Under the pieces are notes generated by a model that saw only the letters and a list, made by a program, of their open reading frames with translations, did not search any database and was not told the DNA's origin. 64,000 bases of DNA from Verrucomicrobiota bacterium (GTDB taxonomy: Bacteria; Verrucomicrobiota; Verrucomicrobiia; Limisphaerales; JADLHS01): positions 124,001 through 188,000 of the forward strand of contig JAKQDQ010000178.1 in the NCBI GenBank assembly GCA_029573725.1. Reading direction: 5' to 3'. This document shows positions 19,665 through 53,225 of the stretch, in pieces. The stretch's first letter is position 1, and the number at the start of each line of letters is the position of its first letter. Both the position numbers and the translations under genes were made by a program.

Positions 19665-20219
19665 TCAGCCCGGCAGCGGCCCGCCCACGTTGATCCCGTG
19701 CTTCAAACAATACGCGCTGTTCGCCACGTATTTTGTCGCCCAATGCTTTAATCCAGCCCGCTCCGCGGGCGTCAAGCTGCGGACGACTTTCGCCGGCGCG
19801 CCCAACACCAGCGATCCTGGTGGAATTTTCATTCCCTGCTTCACCAGCGCCTTCGCGCCAATCAGCGACTGTCGCCCCACGACCGCGCCATCCAGAATAA
19901 TTGCGCCCATGCCAATCAACACCTCGCTCCCAATCCGGCAGGCATGCACCACAGCGGCATGTCCCACGGTGACATAATTGCCAATTGAACACGGATAATC
20001 ATCCGCCAGATGCAGCACCGCGTTGTCCTGGATGTTCGAGTGGTGGCCCACGATGATTTTGTTGATGTCCCCCCGCAACACCGCGCCAAACCATACGCTC
20101 GAATGCGCGCCGATTTTGACGTCGCCCAGCACGTGTGCCCCTTTGGCGATATAGACGGCCCGGCCCAGCCGCGGCCGCCGGCGTAGAAATGTGTCCAATT
20201 GTCGCTCCAACTTGTTCAT
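19665..20219 (-). CDS. Gamma carbonic anhydrase family protein
   Basis: 184 residues of left-handed beta-helix. The three zinc histidines of the gamma class are present: His70 (NAVLH), His87 (VGHAAV) and His92 (VVHAC). The conserved VWFGAVLRGD and IGMGAIILDGA segments also match. These trimeric proteins (YrdA/CaiE/Cam relatives) hydrate CO2 or serve as scaffolds; activity cannot be assumed because many bacterial members lack the acidic proton-shuttle loop seen in Cam. The gene is preceded on the same strand by a run of hairpins ending in a terminator-like stem 41 bp before its ATG, suggesting attenuation or a separate small RNA. Confidence 0.93.
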   Translation of the reverse strand: MNKLERQLDTFLRRRPRLGRAVYIAKGAHVLGDVKIGAHSSVWFGAVLRGDINKIIVGHHSNIQDNAVLHLADDYPCSIGNYVTVGHAAVVHACRIGSEVLIGMGAIILDGAVVGRQSLIGAKALVKQGMKIPPGSLVLGAPAKVVRSLTPAERAGLKHWATKYVANSAYCLKHGINVGGPLPG

Positions 20220-20259
20220 GGGAGTGTTTTACCGGTTCGGGATCGAAAGAAAATAAGAA

Positions 20260-20289
20260 AACCCGCCGCAGTAGCCGCTGCGGCGGGTT
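20260..20289 (-). terminator. Perfect 12-bp GC hairpin with U-rich tail (minus strand)
   Basis: AACCCGCCGCAG at 20260-20271 is the exact reverse complement of CTGCGGCGGGTT at 20278-20289, with a 6-nt loop. Read on the minus strand, the stem is followed by TTTTCTTATTTTC, the form of an intrinsic terminator. It lies 41 bp before the carbonic anhydrase start, so readthrough versus termination could control that gene. Confidence 0.7.
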
Positions 20290-20411
20290 ACCCAACCCAA
20301 ATCCCTTTCGGGATTTCAACCACAACCGCCGGAACCTCAAGACCGGCGACTGTAAACGAACCGCTTCCACCCCACTTGGAAACTGGTCCGTCAAACCCAA
20401 CAATTCGTTGG
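20260..20411 (-). ncRNA. Candidate structured RNA or attenuator leader upstream of gamma carbonic anhydrase
   Basis: On the minus strand five perfect stem-loops occur in a row. In transcript order they are CCAAC/GTTGG (20411-20397), TTCCA/TGGAA (20381-20365), CGCCGG/CCGGCG (20348-20327), AAATCCC-GAAA-GGGATTT (20316-20299, with a GNRA tetraloop), and the 12-bp terminator hairpin (20289-20260) with its U-rich tail. The density of short perfect stems, the GAAA loop and the terminal hairpin are what a cis-regulatory leader or small RNA would show. No known riboswitch class is recognised. A short open frame also crosses the region, so a coding explanation is not excluded. Confidence 0.5.
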
Positions 20412-20468
20412 ACCACTTACTTTCCATTTTATTCAAACAATGTTTTTCGCTAGAGTGTCGGCGTCGTT

Positions 20469-21395
20469 ATGGCCAAAGCTCCTGTCCGCCCTGCCGCACC
20501 CCGAAAACGGCTGCCGAAATCCTTTAAAGATCTCACCCCGGCCCAGCATTTTAATCCCACCTCGTTCTTTCATGAACTGATCTGGAAAGCCCTCCTGACA
20601 CGCCGCCATGGCGAGCCGCAAAAGCCCGTGTTTCCCGAGTTGCAGCCCGGCCAGGTCGCGATCACCTGGATTGGCCATGCCTCGTTTTTGATTCAGTTCA
20701 CGGACTTGAACGTGCTGGTGGACCCCAACTTCGCCAACTGGTTGTTTCTGCTAAAACGCATCAAGCGCTCCGGCTTGCGCCTCAAGGACCTGCCGCCGAT
20801 TGACCTGGTCCTGCTGTCGCACGCGCACTTCGACCATTTCCACAAACCCACCCTCCGCCGCCTCTCCCGGCCGAAAATTGGCATCATGCCTTGGGGCGTG
20901 GGGGAATTGGCGCAGAACCTCGGATTTGAACGGGTGATCGAACTCGATTGGTGGGAGAGCTTCAGTCAGCCAGACGTGAAAGTCACGCTGACCCCGAGCC
21001 GGCATTGGGGCGCCCGGGTTTTGCACGATCACCACCGCGGCTATGGCGGCTTTGTATTGGAACATCAGGGACGCCGGATTTATCATGCGGGCGACACCGC
21101 CTACTTTGACGGATTCAAGGAGATTGGTGAAAAGCTGCAGCCGGACATCGCGCTCCTGCCGATTGGCGCCTACTACCCGGACAGCTTCCGCAAGGTTCAC
21201 ATGGGGCCGGACGAAGCCGTGAAAGCCTTTATTGACCTGGGCTCGCGCTGGTTGATTCCCATGCACTATGGGGCCTTCAAACTCTCCTTCGAAGACCTGG
21301 ACGAACCCCCGCGCTGGCTGCGGAAGCTCGCGACCGAACAAGGTATCAGCGCGAAGGTCCAGATTCTGAACGAGGGCATTCCAGCGACGTTTTGA
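20469..21395 (+). CDS. MBL-fold metal-dependent hydrolase (NAPE-PLD/UlaG-like)
   Basis: 308 residues. The metallo-beta-lactamase metal motif HxHxDH is seen as SHAHFDH (His118, His120, Asp122, His123), with later ligands in TPSRHWGAR, YHAGDTAYF and PMHYGAF. The order 'WIGHASFLIQ' early and 'GDTAYFDGF' later matches the N-acyl-phosphatidylethanolamine phospholipase-D-like branch. The substrate is probably a phosphodiester or a lactone, but is not determinable here. It is transcribed divergently from the structured region upstream of the carbonic anhydrase gene and is followed by tRNA-Gly. A TAGAGT hexamer at 20451-20456 may be its -10 box. Confidence 0.9.
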   Translation: MAKAPVRPAAPRKRLPKSFKDLTPAQHFNPTSFFHELIWKALLTRRHGEPQKPVFPELQPGQVAITWIGHASFLIQFTDLNVLVDPNFANWLFLLKRIKRSGLRLKDLPPIDLVLLSHAHFDHFHKPTLRRLSRPKIGIMPWGVGELAQNLGFERVIELDWWESFSQPDVKVTLTPSRHWGARVLHDHHRGYGGFVLEHQGRRIYHAGDTAYFDGFKEIGEKLQPDIALLPIGAYYPDSFRKVHMGPDEAVKAFIDLGSRWLIPMHYGAFKLSFEDLDEPPRWLRKLATEQGISAKVQILNEGIPATF

Positions 21396-21454: not shown

Positions 21455-21530
21455 GCGAGCGTAGCTCAGTTGGTAGAGCATCACCTTGCCAAGGTGAACG
21501 TCGAGGGTTCGAATCCCTTCGCTCGCTCCA
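21455..21530 (+). tRNA. tRNA-Gly (anticodon GCC)
   Basis: A complete cloverleaf can be folded: acceptor stem GCGAGCG/CGCTCGC, D-arm with AGTTGGTA, anticodon stem TCACC/GGTGA with loop TTGCCAA (anticodon GCC), and T-arm with TTCGAAT. The discriminator base is T and the 3' CCA is encoded (21528-21530). Confidence 0.98.
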
Positions 21531-52472: not shown

Positions 52473-53225
52473 TTACGGAGCGGCAATGATTTCGGCGCGC
52501 TGCCGATGATATTCCTGCGGGGTGATCTGATCGGCTTTGTAACGGCTCAACAGGGCGTCCAATTTTTGTTGCTGGGCCGCCGAGAACGGCGAGGGGATCA
52601 GAGCCGCTGCCGGTGTGAGCCGGGGCGATGGCTGGGTGCTGACGACCCGCCGGTCCGGACCGGCGGGTGGGACGACGGGTTGCGCAGCCATTGCGCTACG
52701 AAGCGCTTCCTCCAGTTTCGCGGGGGTCTCATCCGCCGGCGCAGCCGGCACGTCGGCAAAACGGCGGTTGTCCGGCGCGGGCACGGACGGGGCGACTTCC
52801 ACGGGAGCAGAGATCACCGGCGTGGCGGGTGTCGCCACTGTCGCGGCAGCGGGTGTCTGTGTTCCCAAGGATTGACGTAACGCCTCTCTCAGCCGCGCGG
52901 TATTGGCATCGTCCTCCGGTTCGGTCCAGGCCGGGAAGGCTGGCTGGTGTTGCGGCGTCCCTTTGGCGGCAGGCGCTTCCACCGGGATCGGCACGACAAC
53001 AGTGGGTGTGGCGGCTGGCTTTGTCTCCGGCGTTGGGGGCGGGGTTGCCGGCTGGGGTTTTGCTGGAGCACTCGCGGGAGCGGATGCGCCCGGTTGACCC
53101 ATGGCCTGCCGCAGCGCTTCCCGCAGCCTGGCCTGTTCATCCGTGTCCGGTCCGGCCTGCGACAGGGTGGCGATCAAACCAACGGCAGCGACGCTCAGAA
53201 CCGCGAGAAATTTGGTGTTTTGCAT
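52473..53225 (-). CDS. Secreted protein with three LREALR repeats and a SHOCT-like end
   Basis: 250 residues from ATG 53225, with a signal peptide (FLAVLSVAAVGLIATLSQA). Three short helical motifs recur: ARLREALRQAMGQ, ARLREALRQSLGT and AKLEEALRSAMAA, separated by long Pro/Ala/Thr/Val linkers. The C-terminus (DALLSRYKADQITPQEYHRQ) looks like a SHOCT-type short helical hairpin. Such repeats could bind a partner in multiple copies or the cell wall. No known family covers the whole. It has its own terminator at 52431-52453 and converges on msrA. Confidence 0.65.
   Translation of the reverse strand: MQNTKFLAVLSVAAVGLIATLSQAGPDTDEQARLREALRQAMGQPGASAPASAPAKPQPATPPPTPETKPAATPTVVVPIPVEAPAAKGTPQHQPAFPAWTEPEDDANTARLREALRQSLGTQTPAAATVATPATPVISAPVEVAPSVPAPDNRRFADVPAAPADETPAKLEEALRSAMAAQPVVPPAGPDRRVVSTQPSPRLTPAAALIPSPFSAAQQQKLDALLSRYKADQITPQEYHRQRAEIIAAP

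What the first reader, a model, noticed from the sequence alone, without database searches (positions are those of the whole stretch)
20260..20411. Run of five perfect stem-loops ending in a terminator, upstream of gamma carbonic anhydrase
Within 152 nt of the minus strand there are five consecutive perfect hairpins (5, 5, 6, 7 and 12 bp). One is closed by a GAAA tetraloop, and the last has a U-rich tail 41 bp before the carbonic anhydrase ATG. Seen directly. This is the form of an attenuator/riboswitch-type leader or a small RNA; sensing bicarbonate, pH or a metal would fit the downstream gene but is speculation. No known riboswitch class is recognised.
Basis: partly seen in the sequence, partly recalled or inferred. 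Interest (0 to 1): 0.72.

Follow-up and report, generated by a model that had tools for sequence, protein, structure and literature searches.

The report
Stress-sigma-factor small RNA beside carbonic anhydrase
The string of RNA hairpins is most likely not a switch for the carbonic anhydrase gene but a separate small regulatory RNA with its own stress-type promoter and terminator, sitting where related bacteria instead encode a small secreted protein from the same promoter.

Summary
In detail: five perfect hairpins (5, 5, 6, 7, 12 bp), far beyond chance even without the terminator. The attenuator/riboswitch reading does not hold; the alternative guess, a small RNA, is well supported. Just upstream lies TGAATA-N15-GGTC (20435-20411, minus). 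The same ECF-sigma-type promoter precedes 27 of 30 orthologues of an autoregulated ECF sigma factor and lies in 21 of 28 homologous intergenic slots, against 0 hits in 206 kb of flanking sequence. In 13 slots the promoter drives a small secreted Pro/Tyr-rich protein; in 8, the window included, there is no protein, only a short stretch that nearly always ends in a terminator. Carbonic anhydrase appears to have its own leaderless promoter after the terminator. The RNA's 3' end, GGTTGGGTA plus terminator arm, recurs exactly in only one other family among 320 genomes (marine f25). There it marks two noncoding RNAs with ECF-type promoters: one in the same slot, 94-99% identical while carbonic anhydrase third codon positions are 63-84% identical, and one with a covarying 5' hairpin. 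Neither matches Rfam. Best reading: an ECF-sigma-dependent small RNA with a conserved 3' seed. Its expression, targets and lineage-specific 5' hairpins are untested.

The parts
20411..20435 (-). ECF-sigma-type promoter TGAATA(-35, 20435-20430)-N15-GGTC(-10, 20414-20411)
   Evidence: Same element in 21 of 28 homologous slots and before 27 of 30 ECF sigma orthologues; 0 matches in 206 kb of flanking sequence; only 3 matches to TGAATAAA-N14-GTC in the own 4.28-Mb genome, one of them before the ECF sigma gene. The -10 here is GGTC, not the consensus CGTC.
20250..20404 (-). Predicted small RNA (about 150 nt; start at about 20404 inferred from the -10, end in the U-tract)
   Evidence: Inferred from promoter and terminator; no ORF matching the neighbouring protein family; MFE z = -5.4. 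No transcript evidence available.
20397..20411 (-).
20355..20392 (-).
   Evidence: no homologue in 146 genomes by covariance model
20321..20354 (-).
20299..20316 (-). Stem-loop C, AAATCCC-GAAA-GGGATTT; aligned by the f25 type-2 model with its 5' hairpin
20281..20297 (-). Conserved linker and first terminator bases GGTTGGGTAACCCGCCG; candidate seed GGTTGGGTA (20297-20289)
   Evidence: Exact 17-mer GGTTGGGTARCCCGYCG found only in this genome and 16 genomes of family f25 among 320; invariant in two f25 RNA groups
20260..20289 (-). Rho-independent terminator stem (12 bp, 6-nt loop), followed by the T-rich tract 20261-20246
   Evidence: a terminator ends 33-46 nt before the CA ATG in 20 of 28 slots, and one lies within 150 nt in 21 (control 8 of 56 pieces)
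20226..20231 (-). Likely -10 of the carbonic anhydrase gene (TAAAAC, 6 nt before ATG; leaderless mRNA inferred)
   Evidence: Such a hexamer 9-16 nt before ATG in 18 of 28 slots, against 1 of 28 in the adjacent window 20-27 nt
19665..20219 (-). Gamma-carbonic-anhydrase-like hexapeptide protein (184 aa)
   Evidence: NF050158 180.7 bits, below its cut-off of 250
20469..21395 (+). Divergent metallo-beta-lactamase-fold hydrolase that marks the other side of the slot

Best explanation
The hairpin run is the body of a stand-alone noncoding RNA gene on the minus strand, transcribed from an ECF-sigma-type promoter at 20435-20411 and ended by the intrinsic terminator at 20289-20260. The sigma factor is most likely the ECF sigma/anti-sigma pair encoded elsewhere in the genome, which carries the same promoter before its own gene. 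When that envelope-type stress system is active, an RNA of about 150 nt would be made: stable 5' stem-loops, an unpaired linker GGTTGGGTA and the terminator. By analogy with other ECF-dependent small RNAs it would act on other mRNAs through the linker. Shown here: hairpins, promoter-like element and its association with the ECF gene, terminator, conserved slot, conserved 3' module, purifying selection on the same-slot RNA in f25. Inferred: transcription, sigma dependence, base-pairing mode, targets. In relatives the same promoter-terminator unit encodes a small secreted Pro/Tyr-rich protein, so the locus has switched between coding and noncoding products.
For: Structure beyond chance. ECF-type promoter in 21 of 28 slots against 0 in 206 kb elsewhere, and before 27 of 30 ECF sigma genes including the own genome's; Pfam and NCBIfam name the ECF sigma and, below its cut-off, the anti-sigma. 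Thirteen slots carry the small protein with that promoter; eight, the window included, carry the promoter without it, and the own genome has no copy of the protein. Terminators sit 33-46 nt before CA in most slots. The 3' 17-mer is found only here and in family f25. The f25 same-slot RNA is 94-99% identical while CA third positions are 63-84% and the promoter spacer 46-77%. The f25 second RNA has a covarying 5' stem (0 of 500 shuffles; 90.9% of cells paired against 33-50% when slid). A model of the second RNA finds the window unit as its best hit in the own genome (27.9 bits, E 1.9e-5; next 17 bits, E 0.12). No Rfam family reaches its gathering score.
Against: No transcript data. The window's -10 is GGTC, not CGTC. 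Stem-loops A and B have no homologue in any genome searched, so no covariation supports them. Congeners G002 and G004 kept promoter and terminator around what look like ORF-deleted remnants, and the window interior has a weak sense-strand likeness to the protein genes (p = 0.02), which also fits decay. The f25 set was collected with the window's own 17-mer, so likeness in the linker is partly by selection (L028, L077 and L079 were fetched before that, by CA protein). RNA chaperones and targets were not tested.
Confidence: 0.64

Rival explanations
1. Decaying remnant: the small secreted-protein gene lost its reading frame in this lineage; promoter and terminator persist and the transcript, if made, has no function.
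For: G002, G004 (L010, L011) and G009 (L038) keep promoter or 5' UTR and terminator around a deleted ORF; the gene in G003 starts with ACG instead of ATG; weak sense-strand likeness of the window interior to the coding genes, p = 0.02, antisense p = 0.38.
Against: Neutral decay does not predict a 117-nt interior with MFE z = -4.8 and four perfect hairpins; the ORF-less units of relatives lack such structure outside the terminator (z from +0.9 to -1.8). Decay does not explain the exact 3' linker shared with conserved f25 RNAs or the strong conservation of the same-slot RNA there.
Confidence: 0.22
2. Attenuator or riboswitch-type leader of the carbonic anhydrase gene, with regulated read-through of the terminator.
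For: The hairpin series ends in a terminator 40 nt before the ATG.
Against: A terminator at that place is conserved in relatives where the upstream transcript is an unrelated protein gene; CA has a conserved -10-like hexamer 12-14 nt before ATG, after the terminator; a related unit, the gene with its terminator, occurs without CA in G003; the second f25 RNA with the same 3' end is not next to CA; no Rfam riboswitch match.
Confidence: 0.05
3. A small peptide gene in the hairpin region.
For: A 42-aa GTG frame (20288-20416) and a 145-aa TTG frame that overlaps CA out of frame are open.
Against: Both run into or through the terminator stem; no match to the neighbouring protein family's profile; no homologue of the DNA in 95 relatives.
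Confidence: 0.03
4. A palindromic mobile or repeated element that landed in the slot.
For: The 5' stem-loops are lineage-specific and structured.
Against: Single copy in the genome by DNA search and by covariance model.
Confidence: 0.03

Closest known systems
Sigma-E-dependent sRNAs FoxI and FoxJ of Fusobacterium nucleatum (PMC11005410)
   Same: ECF-sigma-dependent sRNAs in a phylum far from Proteobacteria; FoxJ is about 156 nt and had been misannotated as the 5' UTR of ylmH; the paper has a section on FoxI and FoxJ having similar seed regions. The window unit likewise looked like a leader, and f25 has two RNAs with an identical linker.
   Different: No sequence relation was tested or claimed. 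FoxI and FoxJ are shown experimentally; here expression and targets are not. No coding version of the FoxJ locus is claimed in the abstract.
Sigma-E-dependent sRNAs MicA, RybB and MicL of enteric bacteria (own knowledge)
   Same: Small RNAs with an ECF promoter and intrinsic terminator forming the noncoding arm of an envelope stress response.
   Different: Different sequences and phylum; Hfq dependence known there, not tested here.
LOOT RNA, Rfam RF03000
   Same: Weak alignment over hairpins including the GAAA hairpin: 18.6 bits, E = 0.25 in a 371-nt search.
   Different: Far below its gathering score of 46.4; chance level.

Membership tests
ECF-sigma-dependent small RNA | ECF-type promoter directly upstream | tested here: met
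   TGAATA-N15-GGTC at 20435-20411; the element recurs before the ECF sigma gene and in homologous slots; -10 has one deviation
ECF-sigma-dependent small RNA | Intrinsic terminator at the 3' end | tested here: met
   12-bp stem plus T-rich tract
ECF-sigma-dependent small RNA | No conserved reading frame | tested here: met
   No match to the slot's protein family; frames run through the terminator
ECF-sigma-dependent small RNA | Conserved unpaired seed | tested here: inconclusive
   GGTTGGGTA is invariant in the window and f25 RNAs, but no target has been shown
ECF-sigma-dependent small RNA | Transcript present and dependent on the sigma factor | not testable with these tools
   Needs RNA-seq and a sigma mutant
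ECF-sigma-dependent small RNA | RNA chaperone (Hfq or ProQ) or Csr-type protein binding | not tested
Riboswitch or attenuator leader of gamma-carbonic anhydrase | Hairpins lie in the 5' UTR of the regulated gene | tested here: not met
   Indirect: separate conserved -10 after the terminator, and a conserved terminator of a separate upstream unit in relatives
Riboswitch or attenuator leader of gamma-carbonic anhydrase | Conserved aptamer upstream of the orthologous gene | tested here: not met
   No DNA or covariance-model match to the 5' hairpins upstream of CA in relatives; no Rfam family
LOOT RNA (RF03000) | Covariance-model score at or above gathering (46.4 bits) | tested here: not met
   18.6 bits

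The most novel reading that the evidence does not exclude
One ECF-sigma-controlled promoter-terminator unit beside gamma-carbonic anhydrase alternates across a bacterial order between an mRNA for a small secreted Pro/Tyr-rich protein and a regulatory RNA, with a seed (GGTTGG..) already present in the 3' UTR of the coding version. Protein and sRNA would then be interchangeable or successive outputs of the same stress sigma factor, caught in intermediate states: ORF deleted, start codon lost, structured RNA gained.
Probability: 0.33. Interest if true: 0.72.

Novelty: new member of a known kind. Interest (0 to 1): 0.56.

Why it matters
ECF-dependent small RNAs are known in Proteobacteria and Fusobacteria; my literature searches found none described in Verrucomicrobiota. 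The two f25 RNAs match no Rfam family and come with a candidate sigma factor, promoter and seed, so they are directly testable. The locus also offers a natural series, from intact protein gene through ORF-deleted relics to conserved RNA, for asking how a regulatory RNA arises from an mRNA or the reverse. It also shows how a run of hairpins before a metabolic gene can be mistaken for a riboswitch.

Tried and rejected
Rfam at gathering score and, for 371 nt, at E up to 10: only chance-level matches. DNA similarity of the whole 181 nt in 95 relatives: only a terminator fragment in G035. A covariance model of the window's 5' hairpins in 146 genomes: only the window itself. A protein profile of the slot's secreted protein against the window unit: nothing. 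Alignment of the window interior to the coding genes: weak, p = 0.02, not decisive. The reverse complement of the candidate seed in the window: only the RNA's own locus. Literature: no small RNA of Verrucomicrobiota with this linker; the linker string returned only unrelated papers, such as aptamers and other sequence lists, among the ten of 59 shown.

Full report
Observation. Dinucleotide shuffles give 1.2 such hairpins on average and none of 500 gave five; the folding z-score is -5.5 for the whole and about -4.8 without the terminator. The tips extend to stems of 15 and 12 bp (20392-20355 and 20354-20321).

Surroundings. The hairpins lie between a divergent metallo-beta-lactamase-fold hydrolase (20469-21395, +) and a gamma-CA-like hexapeptide protein (19665-20219, -). 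This pair is adjacent in many members of the order. In 28 loci with the pair adjacent, 13 encode, between them and in the direction of CA, a small secreted Pro/Tyr-rich protein (MKKIILAVTLLA..AGDREWATAGKILTGV..), which has no Pfam or NCBIfam match. The own genome has no copy of this protein.

Promoter. Twenty-one of the 28 slots, the window included, carry TGAATA-N14-18-GTC on the strand towards CA, while the same pattern does not occur in 206 kb of flanking sequence. In the own 4.28-Mb genome TGAATAAA-N14-GTC occurs three times: here, directly before an ECF sigma factor gene on contig 145, and once more on contig 57. Of 30 ECF sigma orthologues (the own genome's and 29 in relatives) 27 have TGAATA..CGTC a few nucleotides before their start codon. 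The gene after the sigma factor resembles an anti-sigma factor (34.8 bits, below cut-off). I infer that this is the autoregulated promoter of that sigma factor and that the slot is another of its targets. The window's -10 reads GGTC where most have CGTC; L027, L028, L076 and L082 also deviate there.

Terminator and CA start. A terminator lies within 150 nt before CA in 21 of 28 slots, ending 33-46 nt before the ATG in 20 of them; interior control pieces gave 8 of 56. Where the protein gene is present it is that gene's terminator. Between terminator and ATG, 18 of 28 slots have a -10-like hexamer 9-16 nt before the ATG, mostly at 12-14, against 1 of 28 in the adjacent window; windows further upstream also match because of the T-tracts. 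So CA is probably transcribed from its own promoter as a leaderless mRNA, and the hairpins are not in its leader.

Slots without the protein. Eight MBL-adjacent slots have the promoter but no protein, and three further CA loci without the hydrolase (L028, L077, L079) have the unit too. Two congeners (L010, L011) retain stretches like the 5' and 3' UTRs of the coding version around a missing ORF, and G009 (L038) keeps 5' UTR and terminator with the ORF gone. In G003 the gene is present with ACG in place of ATG. Loss of the ORF has therefore probably happened repeatedly. The window interior shows only a weak sense-strand likeness to the coding genes (p = 0.02).

A conserved noncoding RNA in the slot. 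L077 and L079, fetched by CA protein, differ by one substitution over about 100 nt from the -10 to the T-tract, while CA third codon positions are 78% identical. Both, and L028, share with the window AGGTTGGGTARCCCGYCG or GGGTTGGGTAACCCGCCG at the start of the terminator. A search for GGTTGGGTARCCCGYCG in 320 genomes of the order found it only in the own genome and in 16 genomes of one marine family (f25), one or two copies each; the reversed control pattern gave one hit, in another genome. In f25 the copies fall into two groups. Group 1 stands before CA with the TGAATA..CGTC promoter; in five loci its RNA is 94-99% identical while CA third positions are 63-84%, the promoter spacer 46-77% and the 60 nt upstream 71-86%. 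Group 2 stands at varying places, mostly with a TGAAAC/GGAACT-N16-CGTC promoter, and has a 5' hairpin, often with GGAGGAG in its loop, then ACAGGTTGGGTARCCCG and the terminator. Its 5' stem covaries: 90.9% of cells paired against 33-50% when slid, 12 double-sided changes against 3.5 in shuffles, score reached by 0 of 500 shuffles. None of the eight loci scanned matches an Rfam family at this place at gathering score.

Link to the window. A covariance model of group 2, built without the window, finds 20324-20256 minus as its best hit in the own genome (27.9 bits, E 1.9e-5; the next own-genome hits, at 17 bits, are a bare palindrome). It aligns the GAAA hairpin, the linker and the terminator with the model. 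Caution: the group was collected with the window's own 17-mer, so the linker match is partly by construction; the independent part is that the loci so collected proved to be conserved noncoding RNAs with ECF promoters, many of them in the same slot. Congeners have GGTTGGTT..CCCG at the same place, consistent with common descent.

Mechanism. The best-supported reading is an ECF-sigma-dependent small RNA of about 150 nt, starting near 20404, with lineage-specific 5' stem-loops, a conserved unpaired linker that is the obvious candidate for target pairing, and a terminator. The first of the five hairpins overlaps the -10 and start region and is probably not fully part of it. Transcription, sigma dependence and targets are inferred. 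The closest working parallel is Fusobacterium FoxI/FoxJ: sigma-E-dependent sRNAs, FoxJ about 156 nt and previously misannotated as the 5' UTR of ylmH (PMC11005410). The main rival is a transcribed but functionless relic of the protein gene; the strong structure and the exact 3' module argue against it, the absence of any close relative for comparison keeps it open.

Novelty. ECF-dependent small RNAs are a known kind; the RNAs here are new members, with no Rfam family, in a phylum for which I found no such report. What would be more than that is the apparent exchange of a secreted protein for an RNA behind one conserved stress promoter.

Noticed in passing
L190:2211-3301 (own genome G000:C145:108710 onward); orthologues L191-L220: A highly conserved ECF sigma factor gene (one close orthologue per genome) followed by a likely anti-sigma gene, with TGAATA-N15/16-CGTC a few nt before the start codon in 27 of 30 orthologues, implying an autoregulated leaderless mRNA; it lies after a hisB-like gene.
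   Followed up: yes
L229-L251 (family f25): Two paralogous noncoding RNAs with identical linker ACAGGTTGGGTARCCCG before the terminator, one before gamma-CA, one at scattered places, with different ECF-type promoters; GGAGGA recurs in both, in the hairpin loop of the second. No Rfam family.
   Followed up: partly
L005, L007, L009, L013, L014, L018, L025, L027, L031, L008 (slot between hydrolase and gamma-CA): Uncharacterised small secreted Pro/Tyr-rich protein family, often ending in His/Arg-rich residues, behind the ECF-type promoter; no Pfam or NCBIfam match.
   Followed up: partly
L171 (G003), L151 (G029), L158 (G031): Signs of decay of that protein gene: ACG in place of ATG in G003; the search reported a stop inside the matches in G029 and G031.
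   Followed up: partly
window 52645-52668: A short, very G+C-rich palindrome that the terminator part of the RNA model hits on both strands.
   Followed up: no
window 21455-21530: tRNA-Gly (gcc), next to the hydrolase gene.
   Followed up: no
L184 (G021:C90:40455): Another copy of the TGAATAAA..CGTC element just before an apparent outer-membrane-type protein gene, a possible further member of the ECF regulon.
   Followed up: no
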